The position numbers and the translations under genes were made by a program. Positions 23,020-63,739 of a DNA stretch of 64,000 nt are shown here, one piece after another. The stretch spans positions 1,054,001-1,118,000 of the forward strand of contig NZ_CP142396.1 in NCBI RefSeq assembly GCF_035934735.1, given 5' to 3'. Within the stretch, counting starts at the first letter, position 1; every line of letters starts with the position of its first letter. Source of the stretch: Sedimentibacter sp. MB31-C6. GTDB taxonomy: Bacteria; Bacillota; Clostridia; Tissierellales; Sedimentibacteraceae. The notes under the pieces were generated by a model. The model was not told where the DNA came from. It searched no databases and worked only from the letters and a program-made list of their open reading frames with translations.

Positions 23020-23035
23020 CTAATCAAATAAACAT

Positions 23036-23225
23036 CTTTCGATATTGGTGCCCATAACTTTAATGGGATAATAGGGAATTAGGTTAAAATCCTAAACAGT
23101 CCTGCTGCCGTAATGAGAGAGCAGTTTTTATGGCTTTGCCAACCACTGGATTATCCGGGAAGGTTAAAAACTTGCTATGACCTCTAAGTCGGAAAACCTG
23201 CCAGTATCATTTGCGTAAATACTGC
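23036..23225 (+). promoter_or_regulatory. Cobalamin riboswitch
   Basis: The leader contains the conserved elements of the adenosylcobalamin riboswitch: TTGGTGCC near the 5' end, GGGAATTAGGTTAAAATCC, CCTGCTGCCGTAATG, ATCCGGGAAGG, and the B12 box variant GTCGGAAAACCTGCCAGTA (23190-23208). A terminator follows at 23312. B12-bound aptamer should reduce expression of the uptake genes downstream. Between the aptamer and the terminator (about 23226-23311) I see no other element. Confidence 0.95.
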
Positions 23226-23399: not shown

Positions 23400-24300
23400 A
23401 TGAAAAAAATTATCTCAATAACTATTATAATTCTTATAATAGCCATGATTACAGGATGCTCATCTGAAAAACCTAAGGAAACAGTATTAACTATTGATCC
23501 TGCTGGAAATGAAATTACTATACCTGAAGAAATTAACTCAATAATATCTATGGCTCCATCTATTACAGAAGTTTTAGTTGAATTAGGTTTTGGTGATAAA
23601 ATCATTGCTGTTGACAATTATTCTGTTAATATTCCTGGTTTACCTGACAATATCCCTAGTTTTGATATTATGACTCCTGATGCAGAGCAACTTACAGCAC
23701 TGAACCCTGATATTATTTTCGCAACAGGAATGAGTAAAAGCGATGGAACTGATCCTTTTAAACCAATAAAGGATTTAGGAATTTCCATAGTTTATATACC
23801 TTCTAGTGATAGTATTGAAGCTATTTATGATGACATAATATTTATTGCCAAAACAATGCAAGTTTCTGATAAAGGAAATGAGCTTGTAGATGAAATGAAA
23901 GCTAAAATTAATGAAATTTCAAAAGAAATAACTGATAAAAAAAACAGTATATTTTGAAATAAATGGCAAGCCAAAATTGTATAGCTTTGGAAAAGGTGTG
24001 TTTTTAAATGAAATGATTGAATTAGTTGGTGCAACTAATGTATTAAACAATCAAGATGGTTGGATTGCCGTTTCAGATGAAGTTATTGTAGCATCAAATC
24101 CTGATATAATATTTACTAATGTAAATAACACAAAAAATGCAGTAGATGAAATTAAAGCCCGTCCTGGTTGGGAAAATATAAATGCTGTCAAAAATGATAA
24201 TGTTTATTTCATTGATAAAAATTCTAGTTCCCATCCAAATCATAACATCATAAAAGCATTGGAACAGATAGCTGAAGCTATTTATCCTAACATATACTAA
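23400..24300 (+). pseudogene. btuF: Cobalamin ABC transporter lipoprotein (BtuF-like), one-base frameshift
   Basis: Two abutting reading frames together encode one BtuF/FecB-type substrate-binding lipoprotein. Codons 1-185 (23400-23957) include the lipobox ITGC (Cys near residue 20) and the PSITEVLVELGFGDKI block. The remainder continues in the -1 frame with YSFGKGVFLNEMIELVGATNVL to 24300. The switch is in a run of eight A bases at 23937-23944. With seven A the product would be a normal 299-residue protein reading DKKTVYFEINGKP across the join. This may be a sequencing or assembly error, a genuine pseudogene, or an A-run transcriptional-slippage site. The neighbours btuC and btuD look intact. 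Confidence 0.88.
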
Positions 24301-41061: not shown

Positions 41062-42405
41062 CTAATTATAACTTTTGGTTACTTTTTCTTCTAGTAATAA
41101 TATGTTACAGGAGAACATATTATCCTTCTCATAGTAATTTATTATTCCGTCATATTTTTTTATTATTTTTTTAATACTCTTTAATCCCATTCCATGATTG
41201 GACTTATTAAACTTCGTTGTTAAAAGATTAGGGTTATCTTTTAACACTGATTTATCTATTGTATTTTTAACTTTAATTAATATATAATCTCTTTTTTTAT
41301 CGATTAATAAACTTATTTCTTTATCGCCTTTTAATTTATCGCATGCTTCTATTGCATTATCCAACAAATTTCCAAATAAAATATTTATGTCTCTTTCTTC
41401 CATGAAATTATCTAACTCATAATTAATTATATAGCTTGTTTTAATTCCATTTGAATTAGCTTCAGATAATTTGTTATTTACTATAGCATTAAACATATCA
41501 TTTTTTGTAAATATAAATTTTTTTGTATTATTTATATCCTTTATTATACTATTAATATATTGCACTCCTTTTTCATAATTTTCATCTTGAATATAAGAGA
41601 GAATACAAATAATTTGATTTCTCATATCATGTCGCATAGCCTGAATTTCATTGTAAAGTTCCTTTATTTCCCAACTATGTTTGTTTTGTAACATAAGATT
41701 TCGTTTTAAAAGTTCATTTTCTGTTGATATTTCATACTCTTGACCTAACTTAACAAACAAATAATAAAAAATAATATTAATGAGTATTAATCCTACTATT
41801 GATAAGAATAAATAAACATTAATTCTCATATCATTATTCAAAACCTCTGTTTCAGTAATAGTAACCATTACAAATATCGTAAGTAATGGAAGAAGAGTTG
41901 TTAATATCCATGAAGTTGAATGAATTTTATCATATTTGTATTTATTGATTTTTAATTTCAATATTATTCTAGATACATAAAATAATAATATTTTAGATGC
42001 TACTAAACTAACAATTCTATATATTCCAAAAGTAGTTATCATATTATCAACACTTACATTAAAAATCATACTAAATATAAATAAAGAAAAACTGTTAATT
42101 AGAATCACAACAACGTTAAAGGTAATACAACTCATTAACTTTTCAATGAATTTTCCTTCAAGAGCTATAATGCTATATATAATCATTACAATTAAAGCTA
42201 CATAACTTGGTATTTCTATAAACGATTCAATATAATTTGCTATCGATACTTCTACAAACAATATTAAAATCGCAAAAACAAAAAGTATGTTTCTTTTTAT
42301 TTTATTATATCTATAACCATTAAATTTTGAAATAAAATCAATCATCAAATATGACTCAAATAAATTAATTAGTAGTTCAAATATAATTATTTGCATCTTA
42401 TTCAT
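41062..42405 (-). CDS. agrC: AgrC-like GHKL sensor histidine kinase
   Basis: A 447-residue kinase with an N-terminal membrane domain of six or seven helices (about 1-220). A short coiled linker (about 222-245) follows. The HPK10-type phosphoacceptor is His259 in QAMRHDMRNQIICIL. The GHKL ATPase has FGNLLDNAIEACDK and NHGMGLKSIKKII. This is the architecture of AgrC receptors that bind cyclic peptide autoinducers. It lies four bases downstream of agrA and last in the locus; in Staphylococcus the order is agrC then agrA. It is preceded by AAGGTG. Confidence 0.88.
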   Translation of the reverse strand: MNKMQIIIFELLINLFESYLMIDFISKFNGYRYNKIKRNILFVFAILILFVEVSIANYIESFIEIPSYVALIVMIIYSIIALEGKFIEKLMSCITFNVVVILINSFSLFIFSMIFNVSVDNMITTFGIYRIVSLVASKILLFYVSRIILKLKINKYKYDKIHSTSWILTTLLPLLTIFVMVTITETEVLNNDMRINVYLFLSIVGLILINIIFYYLFVKLGQEYEISTENELLKRNLMLQNKHSWEIKELYNEIQAMRHDMRNQIICILSYIQDENYEKGVQYINSIIKDINNTKKFIFTKNDMFNAIVNNKLSEANSNGIKTSYIINYELDNFMEERDINILFGNLLDNAIEACDKLKGDKEISLLIDKKRDYILIKVKNTIDKSVLKDNPNLLTTKFNKSNHGMGLKSIKKIIKKYDGIINYYEKDNMFSCNILLLEEKVTKSYN

Positions 42406-42408
42406 ATT

Positions 42409-43119
42409 TCACCTTAGATATTCTATGAGCTTTTGTTGTACATATTGTATGCGAGACCTGCTTATAGGTATTTTTTGATTGTTTTTAATTATTACATTTT
42501 CGTTACTTATCCTTTGAATATATCTTTGATTTACTAGATATCCTAAATGAGTTCTTATAAACCCATATTCCTCTAGTTCCCTTTCCTTTTGATTGATACT
42601 ATCTTTGTATTTATATTGTTTGTTACTCACTGTATTTATAATTATATAGTTTCTACTGCTTTCTATATACAAAATACTATTAACATCAATCTCATACGGT
42701 TTATTATCAATTTTAATATGTATTTTATATGTATTTTTTTCTAATAATTTATGTGCTTCTATAATAGCTTCTGTAAGTTCTTCAACTAATTTAGATTTCA
42801 ATATAAATCTAAATGGCTGAACCTTAAAAGACTCGTAAACAAGTTCATCCTTACCTGTTACAAAGATAATTATTGTATTTGGACTACTTATCCTTATATT
42901 TTGAGCTACTTCTATACCATTTATTTTAGGCATATCAATATCTAAAAAAACAATGTCATAATCATCCTTTGAATGAGAATTAATAAGAGATTTTGCATTA
43001 TTAAATTTATTTATGTCAAAATCACAATTAATTTTCTCAAATTTATTCCTTATTAACTGATATAACTTGTCCAATATTATTTCTTCATCATCACAAATAC
43101 CAATTCTAAAGTAGCTCAT
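42409..43119 (-). CDS. agrA: AgrA-like LytTR response regulator
   Basis: A 236-residue regulator. The receiver domain has DDEE at 10-13 and phospho-acceptor Asp60 in FLDIDMPKING. A LytTR DNA-binding domain occupies about 135-236 (ILYIESSRNYIII, GFIRTHLGYLVN, IPISRSR). It is the presumed partner of the adjacent AgrC-like kinase. It has its own sigma-A promoter at 43230-43258 in addition to any readthrough from agrBD. A strong GGGGGG-type ribosome binding site precedes the ATG. Confidence 0.9.
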   Translation of the reverse strand: MSYFRIGICDDEEIILDKLYQLIRNKFEKINCDFDINKFNNAKSLINSHSKDDYDIVFLDIDMPKINGIEVAQNIRISSPNTIIIFVTGKDELVYESFKVQPFRFILKSKLVEELTEAIIEAHKLLEKNTYKIHIKIDNKPYEIDVNSILYIESSRNYIIINTVSNKQYKYKDSINQKERELEEYGFIRTHLGYLVNQRYIQRISNENVIIKNNQKIPISRSRIQYVQQKLIEYLR

Positions 43120-43229: not shown

Positions 43230-43258
43230 ATTTTAACATAATTTTTTAATTTGCTCAA
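43230..43258 (-). promoter_or_regulatory. Sigma-A promoter of agrA-agrC
   Basis: TTGAGC (43258-43253), 17 bases, TAAAAT (43235-43230) on the reverse strand, followed by a roughly 110-base AT-rich leader with no other feature I recognise. Confidence 0.7.
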
Positions 43259-43353: not shown

Positions 43354-43415
43354 AGAAGATGTATCTCTGATATTTGTAATTTCGACAAAATCTACATATC
43401 AGTGATACATCTTCT
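43354..43415 (-). other. Long hairpin between agr peptide genes and agrA
   Basis: AGAAGATGTATC and GATACATCTTCT pair, extended by CTGATAT/ATATCAG across a single T-T mismatch, giving a stem of about 20 bp with a 21-base loop. No T run follows on the coding strand, so it is not a textbook terminator. It may be an RNA stabiliser or attenuator separating agrBD from agrAC expression. Confidence 0.6.
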
Positions 43416-43522: not shown

Positions 43523-43651
43523 TCAACGATAATCAATGTACGAGTTTTCATTTATTAGCATTCCTTGATTAGCAAATGTAATATTAATCTGAACTGATAT
43601 GAAAGCTAATGTTAAGAAAACCAAAACCACTATTTTTAGTTTTTTTTTCAT
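43523..43651 (-). CDS. Small exported peptide precursor in agr locus
   Basis: A 42-codon gene that I do not recognise. The product begins MKKKLKIVVLVFLTLAFISV, a classic lysine-rich plus hydrophobic signal peptide, and has a TFA|N type-I signal peptidase site near residue 27-28. Cleavage would release the 15-residue peptide NQGMLINENSYIDYR. The ATG at 43651 follows the strong ribosome binding site AAGGGGGGA. It lies 79 bases downstream of agrD on the same strand and upstream of agrA. It resembles neither AgrD nor a bacteriocin that I know. A second signal, an AgrB/AgrC partner or a regulated effector peptide are all possible. Confidence 0.72.
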   Translation of the reverse strand: MKKKLKIVVLVFLTLAFISVQINITFANQGMLINENSYIDYR

Positions 43652-43730
43652 TTATTATCCCCCCTTACTAAAATAATAGTGTTTAATTAACTTTCCCAAT
43701 GGAATCACCCCAAAAACAGATTAACATTGT

Positions 43731-43868
43731 TTACTTATTACTTCTTAGACATTCTGGCTCTTTTGGCTGATGCAATCCCCAGAATGATGTAGAACCTGCT
43801 GCCGAACTAGCTGTTTTCTTAACCTGTTTTGCTATCATTCCAAGTACAGTTTTTTTCATATTATTCAT
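43731..43868 (-). CDS. agrD: AgrD-like cyclic autoinducer peptide precursor
   Basis: A 45-residue precursor with AgrD layout. A basic amphipathic N-terminal helix (MKKTVLGMIAKQVKKTA) is followed by a small-residue stretch and the core STSFWGL. The C-terminal recognition tail HQPKEPECLRSNK parallels the DEPKVPTEL tail of staphylococcal AgrD. By that alignment the five-residue ring is Ser-Phe-Trp-Gly-Leu, closed through Ser (lactone), not Cys (thiolactone). The start ATG at 43868 overlaps the end of agrB by eight bases. Its GGAGGTG ribosome binding site encodes the last residues of AgrB. A second in-frame ATG at 43859 is possible. Confidence 0.9.
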   Translation of the reverse strand: MNNMKKTVLGMIAKQVKKTASSAAGSTSFWGLHQPKEPECLRSNK

Positions 43869-44445
43869 TAGTTACACCTCCTTCTTCTATTATTTTTTTT
43901 ATAATTAAAGCTGCCACAAAAAACATGGTAACTATAATTGTATAAAAAATCTGACTATTTATTTTATATGTAGCTATTCCAATTAAATAAAATGTAAATA
44001 ATAGTATAAGTGTTACCTTCTTATTTCTCTTTTTCTGATTATTTGTTAATTTTTTATTTTTATTATCAACTGGAGAATATTTTATAATAATATATATAGT
44101 TAAAATTATCATACTTATATACATTATTGAAATATAGTTATATGGTATAATTGATATTACTACTATTGATAATAAATATATAATTACTAAAGATACATTG
44201 CATTTAATATATGAATTTGCATGATATCCTCCTGAATACATCCTTATAGATATAAAGGTAATTAAAAACAATATAGAATTTATAATATTATTTAAAATAA
44301 AACCTAAAGAAATTATTAATATTATTCCTACAACTGATGATATAATTAATTGCAATCCATAAATATATATATCTTTTTCATCGTCTGTAATAATATTATT
44401 TGAACAAAAATATTCAGTTATATTATTTGTTAAATAATTAATCAT
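43861..44445 (-). CDS. agrB: AgrB-like peptide-processing membrane endopeptidase
   Basis: A 194-residue membrane protein with about six hydrophobic segments. The AgrB catalytic pair His75 and Cys82 lies in RMYSGGYHANSYIKCN, matching the spacing of S. aureus His77/Cys84. It cleaves the AgrD tail and forms the ring-closed thioester or ester intermediate. I start at the ATG at 44445. A TTG four codons earlier forms part of the GGAGG ribosome binding site and is not used. It is the first gene of the locus and is translationally coupled to agrD. Confidence 0.92.
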   Translation of the reverse strand: MINYLTNNITEYFCSNNIITDDEKDIYIYGLQLIISSVVGIILIISLGFILNNIINSILFLITFISIRMYSGGYHANSYIKCNVSLVIIYLLSIVVISIIPYNYISIMYISMIILTIYIIIKYSPVDNKNKKLTNNQKKRNKKVTLILLFTFYLIGIATYKINSQIFYTIIVTMFFVAALIIKKIIEEGGVTNE

Positions 44446-44480
44446 TGCTACCTCCAATAATTTAATTATATCTTATCTTT

Positions 44481-44527
44481 AATATAACTGATTTTTAAAA
44501 TATGTCAATAGTTTGTGGACAGTTGGT
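44481..44527 (-). promoter_or_regulatory. agrB promoter with candidate LytTR site
   Basis: On the reverse strand TTGACA (44508-44503), 16 bases, TATATT (44486-44481). Just upstream, ACAGTTGGT at 44519-44527 (forward strand) fits the 9-base AgrA/LytTR half-site pattern (W-M-M-GTT-N-R-K). A convincing second half-site one or two turns away is not evident. Autoregulation by AgrA is therefore plausible but unproven. Confidence 0.55.
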
Positions 44528-44564
44528 TGTTTACGTGTACAATCAGTAAATAATATTAAACTAA

Positions 44565-53520: not shown

Positions 53521-54474
53521 CTAAATCAGAATGCAAGCTGCATAATGATTATCATCTACTTTTTTTAAACTAATATTTTCTTCTTTACATCGCTGACTTA
53601 CATATTTACATCTAGAAGCAAAACGACAACCTACAGGTGGATTAATTGGTGATGTAACCTCACCTTTCAAAAGATCTGGCTTTTTACCTTTTTTTGTTAT
53701 GTCTATAACAGGTATAGCAGCTAATAATGCTTTTGTATAGGGATGAGTAGGATTTTTAAACAATTCTTCTGTTGAAGCATATTCTACACATTGACCTAAA
53801 TACATAACAGCTATATTATCTGATATATGCTTTACAACACTAAGATCATGAGTTATAAACATATATGAAAGTTCCTTATTTTCTTGTAAATCCATCATTA
53901 AATTTAAAATTTGAGCTTGTATTGAAACATCTAATGCAGATACTGGCTCATCGCATACAATAAAATTTGGGTTAGTTGCTAATGCCCTTGCTACACCTAT
54001 ACGTTGACGACGACCACCATCTAATTCATGAGGATATGAATTCATTAATCTAGGAGCTAATCCAACTGTTTCCATTAACTCGCGTACCTTTTCATTTAAT
54101 TCAGATTTACTTCTATACATTTTATTTACAATCATAGGTTCTGCAATAATTCCAGCAACAGATAAACGAGGATTTAACGAAGAATAAGGATCTTGAAAAA
54201 TTATCTGCATTTTTAACCTTAGCAGTTTCATTTTTTCTTTATTATATGATACTATATTTTCATTATCATAATATATTTCACCTTCAGTTGGCTCTATTAG
54301 CCTTAATACAGTTCTTCCCAGTGTACTTTTACCACAACCAGATTCACCAACTATTCCAAGAGTATCACCTTTATTAATTGATAAATTAATTCCATCTACT
54401 GCATGAAGTTTTCCCTTAGGTGTATCAAAATATTTTTTTAATTTGTTTATCTTTAAAAGTGGTGTTTTATTCAT
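53521..54474 (-). CDS. oppF: Oligopeptide ABC transporter ATPase (OppF type)
   Basis: A 317-residue ATPase. Walker A is GESGCGKST, the Q-loop is in [14 protein letters not shown], Walker B is [12 protein letters not shown], and the OppD/F C-terminal domain has [17 protein letters not shown]. The signature reads [10 protein letters not shown] with Asp in place of the usual Ser, a variant I recall in other OppF-type subunits. It starts at the ATG at 54474 inside the last codons of oppD (eight-base overlap). Confidence 0.93.
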
Positions 54475-55456
54475 GGTCTTTTCCTTTCTTATAAAGATGA
54501 CATTTAATTTTATGTTCACCATTTATATCAATAACATCTGGTTCAATTGTTCTACATTTATCAAAACATTTAGGACAACGAGGATGAAAGATACAACCTT
54601 TTGGTAAATCCATAGGATCTGGCATCAAACCTTCAATAGGCGAAAGTCTACTTGTAGATACTTTTATGTCTGGTATAGAACCAAACAAACCTGTTGTATA
54701 TGGATGATGGCTGTTTCCTAAAAAAATTTCTTCTGCTGTACCATATTCAATAATAGAACCAGCATACATTACAGCTACTTTCTCGCAAGTTTGAGACACT
54801 ATTCCCAAGTCATGAGTAATTAATATCATTGATGTATTTAATTTAGTTTTTAGGTTATCCATCATATGTAATACTTGTGCTTGTATCGTAACGTCAAGTG
54901 CTGTTGTTGGCTCATCTGCAATTAACAACTCAGGTTCACATGATAAGGCAATTGCAATTACTACTCTTTGTTTCATTCCTCCTGAAAACTGATGGGGATA
55001 TTCATTTTTTCTTGAAGATGGAATCCCAACCATTTCCAATATTTCATCAACTCTTTTATCCATTTCAGTATTTGTCATATCAGGACGATGTATTTCAAGA
55101 GATTCGCGAATTTGATCTCCTACCTTAATAACAGGATTCAAACTTGTCATAGGATCCTGAAATATCATTGAAATCTTTTCTCCTCTAATCAAACGCATTT
55201 CAGCTTCTTTTAGATTTAGAAGATTTTTATTTTCATCAAATATTATCTCACCATTTTTTATATAACCTGTCTTTTTAGGTAAAAGACGCATTATAGAAAG
55301 TGCAGTTGTTGTCTTTCCAGCTCCTGTTTCTCCTACTAGTCCTAATGTCTCACCTTTATTAATAGAAAGAGTTACATTATTTAATACATGAGATATTCCT
55401 TCATCAGTCTTATATTCTACATTTAAATTTTTAATATTTAATAAGTTACTTGACAT
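54467..55456 (-). CDS. oppD: Oligopeptide ABC transporter ATPase (OppD type)
   Basis: A 329-residue ATPase. Walker A is GETGAGKTT, the Q-loop is in MIFQDPMTSLNPV, the signature is FSGGMKQRVVIAIAL, and Walker B is LLIADEPTTALD. The C-terminal oligopeptide-transporter domain has GCIFHPRCPKCFDKCR, whose cysteines are commonly associated with an Fe-S site in this family. ATG at 55456 behind AAAGGA. Coupled to oppF. Confidence 0.93.
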   Translation of the reverse strand: MSSNLLNIKNLNVEYKTDEGISHVLNNVTLSINKGETLGLVGETGAGKTTTALSIMRLLPKKTGYIKNGEIIFDENKNLLNLKEAEMRLIRGEKISMIFQDPMTSLNPVIKVGDQIRESLEIHRPDMTNTEMDKRVDEILEMVGIPSSRKNEYPHQFSGGMKQRVVIAIALSCEPELLIADEPTTALDVTIQAQVLHMMDNLKTKLNTSMILITHDLGIVSQTCEKVAVMYAGSIIEYGTAEEIFLGNSHHPYTTGLFGSIPDIKVSTSRLSPIEGLMPDPMDLPKGCIFHPRCPKCFDKCRTIEPDVIDINGEHKIKCHLYKKGKDHE

Positions 55457-55482
55457 ACATATCGTTCCTTTCAATAGTATAA

Positions 55483-56361
55483 TTAATCCTTTAATCTAGG
55501 ATCAAGGGCATCTCGTAATCCATCGCCTAATAGATTAAGGGATATAACTGAAATTGTAATTGCCGCACCTGGGAACAAAATCAAATATGGAGCTTGACGA
55601 ATAAAGTCACGCCCTTCAAATAACATAGTTCCCCATTCTGGTGCAGGAGGTTTGATTCCTAAACCCATAAAACTTAATGAAGAAATAATCAATATAGTAG
55701 CACCCATTGCAAGAGTTGCTTGTACTATTATTGGACCAATTGCATTTGGTATAATATGTTTAAATATAATTCTTTTATCACTAGTACCACAAGCTTTAGC
55801 CGCCTCAATAAATTCCTCACCTTTAACTGATAAAATCGAAGACCTGATAACACGTGCAAAAACAGGAACATATGCAATTGATAATGCAATTAACAAATTT
55901 ATTATACTTTGTCCTAATGCTGCAACAATAGATATTGACATCAATATAGGCGGTATAGCAAGTAAAATATCCATAAATCGCATAATTATATTATCTATTC
56001 TACCTCCATAATAACCAGCAACGGCTCCTATGATTGACCCAGTTGCTACTGCAATAAACATTGCTATAATTCCAAGAGATAGTGAAATTCTAGATCCATG
56101 GATTATTCTAGCAAATATATCACGACCAAAATGATCAGTTCCAAACCAATGATCTTTGGAAGGTGTTTGAAGACGCAACTCTATATTTTGACCAATAGCC
56201 ATTTCATCGTAATCAACTATAATATCTGCGAATATAGCAATTATCACCATAAAAATTAACAATAAAAGACCAAACATCGCCAGTTTATTTTTACTTAAAC
56301 GATATAATACTGATACTATTTGACTTCTGTTTTTATATATTTTTTTATCACTATTCTTCAT
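55483..56361 (-). CDS. oppC: Oligopeptide ABC transporter permease (OppC type)
   Basis: A 292-residue inner-membrane permease. The OppC N-terminal helix is followed by HWFGTDHFGRDIFARIIHGSRISL, and the EAA loop is EFIEAAKACGTSDKRIIFKHIIPN. Six transmembrane segments are visible. It follows oppB by four bases. Confidence 0.94.
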   Translation of the reverse strand: MKNSDKKIYKNRSQIVSVLYRLSKNKLAMFGLLLLIFMVIIAIFADIIVDYDEMAIGQNIELRLQTPSKDHWFGTDHFGRDIFARIIHGSRISLSLGIIAMFIAVATGSIIGAVAGYYGGRIDNIIMRFMDILLAIPPILMSISIVAALGQSIINLLIALSIAYVPVFARVIRSSILSVKGEEFIEAAKACGTSDKRIIFKHIIPNAIGPIIVQATLAMGATILIISSLSFMGLGIKPPAPEWGTMLFEGRDFIRQAPYLILFPGAAITISVISLNLLGDGLRDALDPRLKD

Positions 56362-56365
56362 GTTA

Positions 56366-57298
56366 CTAACTCCTTACATATTGTGATTTGATACGTGGAT
56401 CTATAAAAGCATAAATAATATCAACCACTAAATTAACAAAACTATATGCTAATGTAACAAACATTACAGTTGCCATAACAGAAGGCGTGTCCTTCATACG
56501 AATAGAATTAATCAGTAAGGTTCCTAAACCTGGAATAGCAAAAACCGACTCTATTATTACTGTACCACCTAATAAGTATCCAAAATCAACACCTATTACA
56601 GTTATAATAGGCAATAATGCATTTCTTAATGCATGTCTAAGTATAACTGACTTTTCTGGAACTCCTTTAGCTCTACTTGTCCTTATATAATCTTGTTTTA
56701 TTACTTCAAGCATTGTAGATCTTGTCATACGAACTAATGTAGCCATAGTAGCTGTAGACAAAGTAATTGCAGGAAGAATATAACTATCCCATGAATAAAC
56801 TCCTGTAGCAGGAAACCAATGTAAATTAAGACTAAATATCAACATTAAAATTAATCCCATAACGAATGATGGAATAGAAGCAAATAACATTGCAGTTACC
56901 ATACTGACAGCATCAGTAAAAGAATATTGTCTAACTGCAGAAATTACTCCAACTGGTATTCCTATTATAGTTGCAACGAGCATTGCAATACTTGAAAGTT
57001 TGAATGTTATTGGAAAGCGAACCATGATTTCTTCAAATACTGGCAAGCGAGTTTGATATGATAGCCCAAAGTCACCTTTCATAGCATCAAAAATAAATTT
57101 AAAGTATCTAACAAAAAAAGGTGAATCAAGTCCTAATTCCGCCTCTAATTTTGCTACATTCTCTGCTGAAGCACTTTGCCCTAAAATCAATTGTGCAGGG
57201 TTACCTGGTGTTAAATTCATAATAAGAAATATAATAAAAGAAATACCCAGCACAACAAAAAGCATCATAAATAACCTTTTTAATATATACTTTAACAT
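56366..57298 (-). CDS. oppB: Oligopeptide ABC transporter permease (OppB type)
   Basis: A 310-residue permease. The N-terminus has LKRLFMMLFVVLGISFIIFLIMNLTPGNPA typical of OppB/DppB. The EAA loop is DYIRTSRAKGVPEKSVILRHALRN. Six transmembrane helices are present. It is separated from oppA by an 80-base gap containing a hairpin, which may reduce permease relative to binding-protein expression. Confidence 0.94.
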   Translation of the reverse strand: MLKYILKRLFMMLFVVLGISFIIFLIMNLTPGNPAQLILGQSASAENVAKLEAELGLDSPFFVRYFKFIFDAMKGDFGLSYQTRLPVFEEIMVRFPITFKLSSIAMLVATIIGIPVGVISAVRQYSFTDAVSMVTAMLFASIPSFVMGLILMLIFSLNLHWFPATGVYSWDSYILPAITLSTATMATLVRMTRSTMLEVIKQDYIRTSRAKGVPEKSVILRHALRNALLPIITVIGVDFGYLLGGTVIIESVFAIPGLGTLLINSIRMKDTPSVMATVMFVTLAYSFVNLVVDIIYAFIDPRIKSQYVRS

Positions 57299-57324
57299 CT
57301 GCTTCTCCTTCTAATCAATAAATT

Positions 57325-57363
57325 ATAAGTGATTTCAAATAATAAATATTTAAAATCACTTAT
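57325..57363 (-). other. Hairpin between oppA and oppB
   Basis: ATAAGTGATTT pairs with AAATCACTTAT around an AT-rich loop. The stem lies between the binding-protein and permease genes, where mRNA-stabilising or attenuating hairpins are common. The T run is weak, so readthrough is expected. Confidence 0.6.
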
Positions 57364-57378
57364 ATAATATATTTCAAA

Positions 57379-58923
57379 TTACCATGAAAAATCTTTAAAC
57401 ATATATATTCCTAAAGGACTTGGAGCAACTCCTTTTAAATTTGCATTTGTTGTTATAGTTGTTTGTTCAAATATCAAAGGTATATTATATGCATTTTCAA
57501 AAATATTTTCTACTACTGCTTCATATGCACTAACTTTTTCTGTTTCACTTACTTGAGCAGCTTCATCTAATAGATTAGAAAGATCTTCAGCTACTACATG
57601 AGTTATATTACCAGTTGGACCATAACAATCCTTGTGGAACTGACTATAAACTACTGAATAAGCATCTAAAAACATAGCTGACCATGAACCTAAAGTAAGT
57701 TCATAATTTCCATTTGAATAAATATCTGTTGAATAAGCGCCTGCTTCCATTACTTCAATATCAAGATTAATTCCTGCTTCTTTCAAATTTGATTGAATAA
57801 TTTGAGCAACTTTTTGATTTTTAGCATCTTCTTTTAATTTTAATACTAATGTAACATCATTTAATCCAGCTTCATTCAATAATTCTTTCGCTTTTTCTAT
57901 ATTATGTTCGTACCCTTTTACATCTGCAGAATATCCATCGCAAACTGTTGGTATAGGTGAATTTGCTGATTTCCCAAAACCTTCTAATGCTCCTGCAATA
58001 ATATCTTCTCTATTAATTGCATAACTAATTGCTTTACGCAATCTAACATCATCTAAAGGTTTTGCTTCTATATTCATATTGAGGGTTAATACTGAAGCCT
58101 GGTCTGTACTATAAAAAGCTAAATCTTTATTTTCTTCTACTATTGATATATCAGATGTATTTACATTTAAATATGCATCTATTTCTTTATTTTCAAGTGC
58201 TATTAATCCTGTGTTTTTATCTGTAATAGGTCTTATATTTATAGTCTTCATTGAAGGAGCACCTTGGAAATATTCTTCATTAGCTTCTAATGTAATATGA
58301 TCTCCTATAATCCATTCCTTCAATATATATGCTCCTGTTCCCATTGGTTCACGTTTTATTGCATCATCTCCCTTTGTCTCAACGTAATTTTTACTCATAA
58401 TCGCAAAAAACGGTGATGCTAAACTACCAATCATTCCACCAAATGGTTTAATTAATGTAATTTTAACTGTATTTTCATCAACAAGAGATACACTATCTAT
58501 AAAAGCTGTCATATCTGCTGCCCAGCCCTTTTCAATTGTACGATCTATTGAAAATTTTACATCTTCTGCTGTTAAAATGCTTCCATCATGGAATTTTACA
58601 TCCTGTTTTATAGGTATCGTATATTCTAGACCATCTTCAGAAACTATTATTTCTTCAGCTAAGCTAGGTTTATATGTACCATCATCTGCCACTTCTACTA
58701 AGTTATCATATAATCCATATGTTACTGTAAATGCACTCATCATAGCAAATGTCATAGGATCAAGCGAATATGGCTCTGAACTTATACCATAAACAAAATC
58801 TGTTCTTGTTTCACCATTTTCATTAGAAGTATTTTGATTTGTGCTTGAGCTGCATGCTGTAATAGTTGTTAAAGCTATTGTAATTACTAGAAAAAACGCA
58901 ATATATTTATTGAATGTTTTCAT
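57379..58923 (-). CDS. oppA: Oligopeptide ABC transporter substrate-binding lipoprotein
   Basis: A 514-residue family-5 extracellular solute-binding protein. The lipoprotein signal peptide ends in the lipobox ITAC (Cys near residue 24). The SBP_bac_5 body includes EYTIPIKQDVKFHDGSILTAEDVKFSIDR and AISYAINREDII. It captures peptides (or possibly other ligands such as nickel chelates) at the cell surface for OppBCDF. I start at the ATG at 58923 behind GAGGAG; an ATG nine codons upstream lies before that site. It is the first gene of the operon after a near-consensus promoter. Confidence 0.92.
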   Translation of the reverse strand: MKTFNKYIAFFLVITIALTTITACSSSTNQNTSNENGETRTDFVYGISSEPYSLDPMTFAMMSAFTVTYGLYDNLVEVADDGTYKPSLAEEIIVSEDGLEYTIPIKQDVKFHDGSILTAEDVKFSIDRTIEKGWAADMTAFIDSVSLVDENTVKITLIKPFGGMIGSLASPFFAIMSKNYVETKGDDAIKREPMGTGAYILKEWIIGDHITLEANEEYFQGAPSMKTINIRPITDKNTGLIALENKEIDAYLNVNTSDISIVEENKDLAFYSTDQASVLTLNMNIEAKPLDDVRLRKAISYAINREDIIAGALEGFGKSANSPIPTVCDGYSADVKGYEHNIEKAKELLNEAGLNDVTLVLKLKEDAKNQKVAQIIQSNLKEAGINLDIEVMEAGAYSTDIYSNGNYELTLGSWSAMFLDAYSVVYSQFHKDCYGPTGNITHVVAEDLSNLLDEAAQVSETEKVSAYEAVVENIFENAYNIPLIFEQTTITTNANLKGVAPSPLGIYMFKDFSW

Positions 58924-59130
58924 AAGATTTTTCTCCTCGTTTGTTTTCATAGTTTTAGTTCTAAATAATAATTTATTGATTTATTATTCTATTTTTACAT
59001 ATTTTGAAATCAATTTCCTAAAAATTTTTCTACATTAGTTTTTAAACAGCTATGTAAATCCCCCTTTGTCAAAAATTCAAATAAAACGCTATTACAAAAA
59101 TATTTTTTCCACTTTTGTACGTACTTTCTG

Positions 59131-61501: not shown

Positions 61502-63739
61502 TTATATCTTTTCAATTGGAGCGTAGCTAATTAGAACATTTTTTATTCCTTTATTATCAAAAGCAATGACAGCCATTCTGTCATCTCCTTCTCCTGTCAT
61601 CTGTACTATAGTTCCTATTCCCCAAGCCTTATGCATTATTTTATCTCCAGTATTTAATTTGTCTGATTTAAGCTTTGGTTTAGGTTCTTGTTTTTCTTCG
61701 TAGTTCATTACGCCTTTAAATAAATTATTATTTTTATAAGATTTCCTTCTATTAGTAGAATTATTCTTTTCTATGGTTTCCAGCTTTTTATTTGCAAATG
61801 TCTCAGAATCTGAAGATTCAAAACATTCCTCTGGAACCTCCCTCAAAAATCTCGACCTGCTTTTAACTTCATGATTTCCAAAACGCATTCTTTCATTAGC
61901 ATAAGTTATATATAACATTCTTTTTGCTCTAGTAACAGCAACATAGAAAAGTCTTCTTTCTTCTTCTATATCGTCTTCTTCATCTTGATGAATTATCGGA
62001 AATATTCCTTCTTCCAATCCTGTCAAAAATACAGTATCATATTCCAGTCCCTTAGCACTATGCACTGTCATTAATGTTACGCTATCCTGTTGTGATTCAT
62101 CTGTTTTATCAACATCAGCCAGCAAAGATGTATGTGATAAAAAGTCTTCTATACTATTTTCTTCATATCTTTCTTCAAAGTCCATTGCTGCTGATAAAAA
62201 TTCATCTATATTTTCTACACGACTTCTACCCTCTATTGTAACATCTTCAGATAACATTGATTTATATCCAGTATCTTCATATACTTCTTGAATAAATTCA
62301 CTAAGAGACATTACATCCTTTTTTATCATTAACATTTCCATTATAGATATGAAGTTTTGAACACTTCTTGTAGCAGAAGGAGTAATGCCAAGTTCTTTTA
62401 CATCATAACAAGCATCAAACATTGATATGTTATTTGATATTGCATATTCATAGATAGTATCAATTGTTTTTTGACCTATTTTCCTTTTTGGCACATTTAT
62501 TATTCTTTTAAAACTAATATCATCTTTTTGATTAAATACTAGCATCAAATATGCCATTATATCCTTAATTTCTCTTCTTCCATAGAACTTCAGACCACCA
62601 ACGATTTTATATGGTATTCCTTCTCTAATTAAACCTTCTTCTAATGCTCTTGATTGAGCATTTGTCCTATAAAGAATTGCCATATCAGAATAAGAAATAT
62701 TATTTTCTCTTCCTTCTTTTCTCATTAATGCTGCAACTGTAAAAGCTTCAGCTTTTTCATTATCAGTTTCAAAGAGTCTAATTAAATTTCCCCCTTCGAA
62801 ATCAGTATAAAGATTTTTTCCTTTTCTTTGGCAATTATTTTTAATAACACCGTTAGCAGCATTTAAAATAACATTTGTAGAACGATAGTTTTTTTCTAAC
62901 TTAATCGTTTTTGCTTTTTTGAAATCTTTTTCAAAATCAAGGATGTTATTTATATCTGCCCCTCTCCAACCATATATGGATTGATCTTCATCTCCTACTA
63001 CAAATACATTACTTTCACCTGTTTTTTTAATCCCTAGTATTTTTACTAAATTATATTGAACATTATTAGTATCTTGATACTCATCTACAAGTATGTATTT
63101 GAAACGTTCTTGATATAAATGCAATATTTCCTCATCAACTTCTAAAAGCTTAAGTGTTTTAATAATTAAATCATCAAAATCAAGTGCATTAGCTGATTTT
63201 AATTTTTTTTCATAAAGAGAAAACACCTCTCCAGTATTTCGTAACTGAAAGTTACCATAATTCTCTGAAATAAATTTGTCAGGAGTATTTCTTTTGTTTT
63301 TTTCATTACTTATAATGCTTTTTATAACATTTACATTATACTTTTTTTTATCTAAATTTACTTCCTTTATGCAATCTCTCAATAAAGTTTTTTGGTCATC
63401 AGAGTCATAAATAACGAAATTTTTATCATATCCTAATCTATCTATATCTCTTCTCAATATTCGCACACATATGGAGTGAAATGTTCCTATCCACATTTTA
63501 TCAATTGAGTAGTCTATAAGTTGTCCAATTCTTTCTTTCATTTCATTAGCTGCTTTATTTGTAAATGTAATGGCTAAAATCTCCCATGGCTTTGCTTTTC
63601 CTGTTTCAATTAAGTTTGCAATGCGATGAGTTAAAACTCTTGTCTTCCCAGTGCCTGCCCCTGCTATAACAAGTATAGGACCTTTATCATGAGCTGCAGC
63701 TTCTCTTTGTTTTTCGTTTAATCCACTTAATAAACTCAT
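61502..63739 (-). CDS. pcrA: UvrD/PcrA-type ATP-dependent DNA helicase
   Basis: A 745-residue superfamily 1A helicase with 3'-5' polarity acting in repair and plasmid or replication-fork maintenance. The motifs appear in order: LNEKQREAA (Q), GAGTGKTRVL (Walker A), TFTNKAANEMKER (Ia), DEYQDTN (II), VVGDEDQSIYGWRGA (III), YRTNAQSRALEE (IV), LMTVHSAKGLEYDTVFL (V) and VAVTRAKRMLYI (VI). The C-terminal Tudor-like tail (DKIMHKAWGIGTIVQM) contacts RNA polymerase in PcrA. It forms an operon with ligA, a common clostridial and bacillar arrangement. GGAGG precedes the ATG. Confidence 0.96.
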   Translation of the reverse strand: MSLLSGLNEKQREAAAHDKGPILVIAGAGTGKTRVLTHRIANLIETGKAKPWEILAITFTNKAANEMKERIGQLIDYSIDKMWIGTFHSICVRILRRDIDRLGYDKNFVIYDSDDQKTLLRDCIKEVNLDKKKYNVNVIKSIISNEKNKRNTPDKFISENYGNFQLRNTGEVFSLYEKKLKSANALDFDDLIIKTLKLLEVDEEILHLYQERFKYILVDEYQDTNNVQYNLVKILGIKKTGESNVFVVGDEDQSIYGWRGADINNILDFEKDFKKAKTIKLEKNYRSTNVILNAANGVIKNNCQRKGKNLYTDFEGGNLIRLFETDNEKAEAFTVAALMRKEGRENNISYSDMAILYRTNAQSRALEEGLIREGIPYKIVGGLKFYGRREIKDIMAYLMLVFNQKDDISFKRIINVPKRKIGQKTIDTIYEYAISNNISMFDACYDVKELGITPSATRSVQNFISIMEMLMIKKDVMSLSEFIQEVYEDTGYKSMLSEDVTIEGRSRVENIDEFLSAAMDFEERYEENSIEDFLSHTSLLADVDKTDESQQDSVTLMTVHSAKGLEYDTVFLTGLEEGIFPIIHQDEEDDIEEERRLFYVAVTRAKRMLYITYANERMRFGNHEVKSRSRFLREVPEECFESSDSETFANKKLETIEKNNSTNRRKSYKNNNLFKGVMNYEEKQEPKPKLKSDKLNTGDKIMHKAWGIGTIVQMTGEGDDRMAVIAFDNKGIKNVLISYAPIEKI

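What the first reader, a model, noticed from the sequence alone, without database searches (positions are those of the whole stretch)
43523..43651. Extra exported mini-peptide gene inside the agr locus
Seen: a 42-codon gene between agrD and agrA has a strong ribosome binding site, a textbook signal peptide and a predicted signal-peptidase cut that would release NQGMLINENSYIDYR. Known: agr loci normally consist of B, D, C and A only. Inference: this is a second secreted signal, a modulator of AgrB/AgrC, or an Agr-controlled effector carried with its regulator. I do not recognise it as any described agr component.
Basis: partly seen in the sequence, partly recalled or inferred. Interest (0 to 1): 0.75.

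Follow-up and report, generated by a model that had tools for sequence, protein, structure and literature searches.

The report
Orphan exported peptide in agr operon
A small gene for a secreted peptide sits right after the signal gene of a bacterial quorum-sensing operon, in a position where related species carry different secreted-protein genes; it is probably the circuit's own output and looks real, but it has no known relatives and its job is untested.

Summary
Window 43651-43523 (-) encodes a 42-aa ORF ("X") with a strong ribosome-binding site and signal peptide; a TFA|N cut would leave NQGMLINENSYIDYR. It lies 79 nt after agrD and 400 nt before agrA (order agrB-D-X-A-C). None of 4000 spacer shuffles gave such an ORF. 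Across 99 kb of non-coding DNA in 44 agr regions, the only other ORFs passing an equivalent filter were ten AgrD precursors.
X is not an AgrD and has no homologue in 249 genomes of its order or 391 of its class, so a conserved second signal has no support. The leader before X is homologous to that before a 413-aa exported protein in the nearest relative (chain score 65; shuffle maximum 54). The next relatives carry a different exported protein, or none, there. An AgrA-type tandem repeat precedes agrB, is shared with two relatives, and matches exactly only once in the genome.
Best reading: X is the Agr-controlled, lineage-specific output gene of the agrBD operon, in a turnover-prone exported-effector slot. 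Rivals: a stub of a larger effector, a linear second signal or Agr modulator, or part of a regulatory RNA. Function is untested.

The parts
43523..43651 (-). X: 42-aa exported mini-peptide ORF (signal peptide about 27 aa, predicted mature NQGMLINENSYIDYR)
43649..43735 (-). agrD-X spacer: element TGGGGTGATTCCATTGGGAAAGTTAAT plus X leader ACTATTATTTTAGTAAGGGGGGATAATAAATG, collinear with the agrD-exported gene spacer of G024
43731..43868 (-). agrD, 45 aa, TIGR04223; core STSFWGL-HQPKEP (a Ser lactone is inferred, there being no Cys in the core)
43861..44457 (-). agrB (PF04647, E=2.3e-43)
44481..44508 (-). agrB promoter TTGACA-16-TATATT
   Evidence: consensus scan; conserved in relatives by inspection
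44517..44547 (-). AgrA/LytTR-type tandem site ACTGATTGTAC-N9-ACCAACTGTCC, 8-9 nt before the -35; only exact match in the 3.02-Mb genome
43354..43415 (-). 29-nt-arm hairpin between X and the agrA promoter, unique in the genome; likely the 3' end of the agrB-D-X transcript (no U-tract)
   Evidence: (z=-3.3)
43230..43258 (-). agrA promoter TTGAGC-17-TAAAAT with TG extension, conserved in G024
42409..43119 (-). agrA (Response_reg + LytTR)
41062..42405 (-). agrC (GHKL sensor kinase)

Best explanation
X is the third gene of an AgrA-controlled agrB-agrD-X transcript and fills an exported-effector slot behind agrD. When the AgrD autoinducer accumulates, AgrC-AgrA act through the tandem site before agrB; the same transcript then raises AgrB, AgrD and X. 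X is exported by Sec, trimmed by type I signal peptidase, and releases a 15-residue, slightly acidic linear peptide as the circuit's density-dependent output. Its target is unknown; an effector acting on neighbours or on the producer's surface is my guess. Shown in silico: ORF, RBS, signal-peptide pattern, regulatory site, slot homology, lineage restriction. Inferred: co-transcription, AgrA binding, export, cleavage, activity.
For: The ORF is far above chance. No promoter-like site on this strand falls in the 79-nt agrD-X gap, so X should be read from the agrB promoter. The tandem site before agrB is shared with G024 and G008 and matches exactly only once in G000. agrA-agrC has its own promoter, conserved in G024, giving agrBD(X) and agrAC units, much as C. 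acetobutylicum has agrBD and agrCA (PMC10301443). The X leader is collinear with the leader of the 413-aa exported gene behind agrD in G024: score 65, against a shuffle maximum of 54 and a maximum of 47 for other G024 stretches. G008 has another exported protein (127 aa) plus a membrane protein and ABC ATPase in that slot. Exported genes adjoin agrBD in other loci of the order.
Against: X has no homologue, so selection on the mature part cannot be tested. No transcript or peptide data exist. G017 has an intrinsic-terminator-like sequence after agrD and no exported gene there, so the slot is dispensable. The exported neighbours are unrelated to X beyond signal-peptide likeness. The AgrA site rests on comparison and known LytTR architecture, not on binding, and its consensus was partly derived from this locus.
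Confidence: 0.55

Rival explanations
1. X is a stub: the surviving 5' end of a larger exported effector gene that was lost by deletion, so the peptide has no function of its own.
For: The leader is homologous to that of a 413-aa exported gene in G024. In another family of the order (L107, G220) the 31-aa signal-peptide ORF between agrB and agrD is followed by shifted reading frames, as expected of a decayed exported gene.
Against: The 400 nt after X show no coding remnant in any frame and no similarity to the effectors tested. RBS, signal peptide and cut site are intact. The mature part does not match the 413-aa protein better than shuffles do.
Confidence: 0.22
2. X is a second, linear signal or a modulator of the Agr system: for example a Phr-like pheromone re-imported by an oligopeptide permease, or a small membrane peptide acting on AgrB or AgrC.
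For: Signal peptide plus a short hydrophilic tail is the layout of Phr/Qss-type pheromone precursors (own knowledge). An oligopeptide-type ABC transporter lies about 10-15 kb away (53521-58950; named from its sequence, not searched).
Against: No TPR/HTH receptor gene lies beside X. Three related agr loci lack X. X is not AgrD-like. No conserved tail exists anywhere.
Confidence: 0.13
3. The agrB-D-X transcript or its 3' part is chiefly a regulatory RNA, like RNAIII with hld, and X is an incidental or secondary peptide.
For: Agr regulons generally include a regulatory RNA (PMC10602386). A stable hairpin lies between X and agrA (z=-3.3).
Against: The fold of the whole spacer is only mildly better than shuffles (z=-1.86). 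No Rfam match there. The hairpin is not conserved in relatives by alignment.
Confidence: 0.07
4. X is a chance ORF in an untranslated spacer.
For: It has no homologue and is only 42 codons in an AT-rich spacer.
Against: 0 of 4000 shuffles matched it, and every other ORF passing the same kind of filter in 99 kb is an AgrD precursor.
Confidence: 0.03

Closest known systems
C. acetobutylicum CA_C0082, LanM-like Agr effector gene directly downstream of agrCA (PMC10301443)
   Same: An effector gene carried at the agr locus and expressed under Agr control; agrBD and agrCA are separate units; not a core agr component.
   Different: CA_C0082 is a LanM-like protein with its own promoter region after agrCA and is tested genetically; X is a 42-aa exported peptide after agrD with no recognisable promoter of its own and no test.
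S. aureus RNAIII/hld (delta-haemolysin), from own knowledge
   Same: A small peptide gene at the agr locus under AgrA control.
   Different: hld has its own promoter (P3), no signal peptide, and sits in a regulatory RNA; X has a signal peptide and is in the agrBD unit.
C. difficile RgaR regulon (PMC10602386)
   Same: An AgrA-like regulator with few direct-repeat targets, including agrB1D1 and a small ORF of unknown function (CD15111).
   Different: The small ORF is at a separate locus; RgaS does not respond to AgrD1.
AgrD cyclic lactone precursors (TIGR04223)
   Same: Size, and the hydrophobic N-terminus seen in some AgrDs.
   Different: X lacks the core Cys/Ser ring segment and the QPxxP motif and has no family hit.

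Membership tests
Agr quorum-sensing locus (the surroundings) | AgrB endopeptidase, AgrD precursor, GHKL sensor AgrC, LytTR regulator AgrA together | tested here: met
   PF04647 2.3e-43; Response_reg and LytTR; GHKL domain; TIGR04223 1.4e-11
AgrD family (for X) | TIGR04223 match; ring Cys/Ser segment followed by [QE]PxxP | tested here: not met
   No NCBIfam hit; X scores 2.2 bits against a 51-sequence AgrD profile, equalled or exceeded by 178 of 200 shuffles
Agr-linked effector gene (functional class, cf. CA_C0082) | Located at the agr locus in the same orientation | tested here: met
   79 nt after agrD, same strand
Agr-linked effector gene (functional class, cf. CA_C0082) | Expression controlled by AgrA and the autoinducer | not testable with these tools
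   In silico only: tandem AgrA-type site before agrB, exact match once in the genome
Agr-linked effector gene (functional class, cf. CA_C0082) | Mediates an Agr phenotype while not needed for AIP synthesis | not testable with these tools
   Needs mutants; G017 has agrBDCA without X
RRNPP/Phr-type linear pheromone precursor | Adjacent cytoplasmic TPR receptor gene | tested here: not met
   Neighbours are agr genes, a pyruvate carboxylase-like gene and a nitrilase-like gene (the last two named by reading the sequences); receptors elsewhere in the genome were not searched
Delta-haemolysin/PSM-type peptides | No signal peptide; amphipathic helix as product | tested here: not met
   X has a signal-peptide pattern; the predicted mature part is hydrophilic and slightly acidic by inspection

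The most novel reading that the evidence does not exclude
X is a second, linear secreted signal born inside an agr operon, so that one AgrA-driven transcript emits a cyclic and a linear peptide at once (a two-channel quorum system), in a slot where agr loci recruit new exported genes.
Probability: 0.1. Interest if true: 0.75.

Novelty: new variant of a known kind. Interest (0 to 1): 0.42.

Why it matters
The outputs of most clostridial agr systems are unknown. Here the AgrA-type site matches exactly only once in the genome, and X is the only non-agr gene predicted on that transcript, so X is a specific candidate for the circuit's output. Comparison with relatives suggests the position behind agrD is a slot where different exported genes come and go, a way to guess agr outputs from sequence alone.

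Tried and rejected
Homologues of X in 60 relatives, 249 order genomes and 391 class genomes and in plasmids: none; weak hits are signal-peptide likeness. Pfam, NCBIfam and PHROGs for X: nothing credible. X as a decayed AgrD: rejected. X as 5' end of a decayed gene: no remnant found in 400 nt, kept as a rival. L107 31-aa mini-ORF as an independent analogue: rejected, the following sequence looks like a frame-shifted exported gene. Hairpin 43354-43415 as a repeated element: rejected, unique. Other AgrA sites in the genome: only 3-mismatch matches, near the level of the reversed-pattern control. RNA family in the G024 spacer: none there. The G024 spacer as a repeat: weak AT-rich matches only; the best G000 match falls before an ABC permease gene.

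Full report
Observation. The window's agr locus lies on the minus strand: agrB 44457-43861, agrD 43868-43731, X 43651-43523, agrA 43119-42409, agrC 42405-41062. Family searches confirm AgrB (PF04647, E=2.3e-43), AgrA (response regulator plus LytTR), AgrC (GHKL) and AgrD (TIGR04223, E=1.4e-11). Among 4000 dinucleotide shuffles of the 611-bp agrD-agrA spacer, 710 gave an ORF of at least 40 codons, 17 had such an ORF with an RBS, and none combined RBS and signal peptide. A second control scanned 98,872 nt of non-coding DNA in the window and 43 other agr regions. Eleven mini-ORFs of 30-60 codons passed: ten AgrD precursors and X. The filter therefore picks out real exported or AgrD-type genes, and X is unlikely to be chance.

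No homologue. X has no homologue beyond signal-peptide likeness in 60 relatives, 249 genomes of the order, 391 genomes of the class, plasmids, Pfam, NCBIfam or PHROGs. It does not score as an AgrD: shuffled versions of itself usually score higher on an AgrD profile. The nearest available AgrB proteins are only 61, 55 and 45% identical, so an allele-level test was not possible.

Neighbourhood in relatives. The three nearest loci have the order agrA-agrC-agrB-agrD; the window has agrB-agrD-X-agrA-agrC. Behind agrD, G024 carries a 413-aa exported protein and a 161-aa protein. G008 carries a different 127-aa exported protein followed by a 644-aa membrane protein and an ABC ATPase (bacteriocin-like in layout, my reading). 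G017 has an intrinsic-terminator-like sequence and then a gene read here as dihydroorotase-like, with no exported gene directly behind agrD. The agrD-X spacer of the window aligns in two collinear blocks with the two ends of the agrD-exported gene spacer of G024: TGGGGTGATTCCATTGGGAAAGTTAAT just after agrD, and ACTATTATTTTAGTAAGGGGGGATAATAAATG at the X start; in G024 the second block ends about 20 nt before the start of the exported gene. The chained score is 65, with a maximum of 54 in 150 dinucleotide shuffles and 47 in 54 other G024 stretches; the same comparison with G017 and G008 is at background. X thus occupies the position of an exported gene in the nearest relative, although the products are unrelated beyond their signal peptides. 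Elsewhere in the order exported genes also adjoin agrBD, at various sides. About 10% of RBS-bearing ORFs of at least 100 aa pass the same crude signal-peptide test, so single cases mean little; the homologous leader is the stronger evidence.

Regulation. Upstream of agrB, window, G024 and G008 share two direct repeats of the form ACYRAHYGTMC at 20-bp spacing, just before a TTGACA/T-type -35. G017 shows only the promoter-proximal repeat. The reverse complement of the window's proximal repeat reads GGACAGTTGGT, which contains ACAGTT, the core of the S. aureus AgrA repeat as I recall it. Paired direct repeats just upstream of the promoter fit AgrA (PMC4227749) and the C. difficile homologue RgaR, where G residues at -51 and -72 matter (PMC10602386). 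The tandem site has one exact match in the 3.02-Mb genome, before agrB; the next best matches have three mismatches and are near the level of the reversed-pattern control. In G024 and G008 the only exact match is likewise before agrB. agrA has a separate promoter conserved with G024. The predicted AgrA regulon by this strict site is therefore agrB, agrD and X alone. The pattern was built partly from this locus, and looser sites would be missed.

How it most likely works. Autoinducer accumulation activates AgrC-AgrA, AgrA raises the agrB-D-X transcript, and X is exported and cut to release a 15-residue linear peptide as the output of the circuit. Confidence is 0.55. Co-transcription, binding, export and activity are inferred. 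The strongest rival is a stub of a lost larger effector. L107 in another family shows a signal-peptide mini-ORF that is probably the front of a frame-shifted exported gene. The 400 nt after X show no such remnant.

Comparison. The closest tested precedent is CA_C0082 of C. acetobutylicum, an Agr-controlled effector gene directly downstream of agrCA, not needed for active AIP (PMC10301443). S. aureus hld is a small peptide at agr, but lies in RNAIII and lacks a signal peptide (own knowledge). The C. difficile RgaR regulon holds few targets, including a small ORF of unknown function. X is of this general kind, an agr-linked output gene, but as a signal-peptide mini-gene in the agrBD unit it differs from each. 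No paper describing such a gene was found in four literature searches; the library does not hold most subscription papers.

Identity of the organism. G017, in the same genus, corresponds to the MAG Firmicutes bacterium UBA4845 (same 48,766-base contig). Sedimentibacter or a close relative is my guess and was not tested.

Noticed in passing
L054:4566-7440 (G000:C1 about 2973565-2976439): The same genome has a second agr locus with order agrA-agrC-agrD-agrB and a Cys-type AgrD (NTTSCCIMHQPKVP); no exported gene lies directly beside it.
   Followed up: partly
L053:5690-8960: In G008 the gene behind agrD is a 127-aa exported protein followed by a 644-aa membrane protein and an ABC ATPase, a bacteriocin-like layout; the two proteins searched (127 and 644 aa) have no credible Pfam hit.
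   Followed up: partly
L107 (G220), between agrB and agrD: A 31-aa signal-peptide ORF followed by shifted frames, apparently a decayed exported gene; a 106-aa exported gene upstream of agrB resembles one upstream of agrB in G214 (L104).
   Followed up: partly
window 23400-24300: A BtuF-like substrate-binding protein gene after a cobalamin riboswitch (23029-23219) is split into two ORFs in different frames (185 and 107 aa), suggesting a frameshift or sequencing error.
   Followed up: no
window 43656-43709: The agrD-X spacer holds a possible 17-codon GTG ORF (MIPLGKLIKHYYFSKGG) whose start MIPL matches a 6-codon ATG ORF (MIPLKR) in the G024 spacer; meaning unknown.
   Followed up: no
window 61895-61990: Match to Rfam RF03531 (n00280, a C. 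difficile sRNA within a helicase gene) inside the pcrA-like helicase gene.
   Followed up: no
L051:3785-5601: G024 carries a group II intron downstream of its agr-linked exported genes.
   Followed up: no
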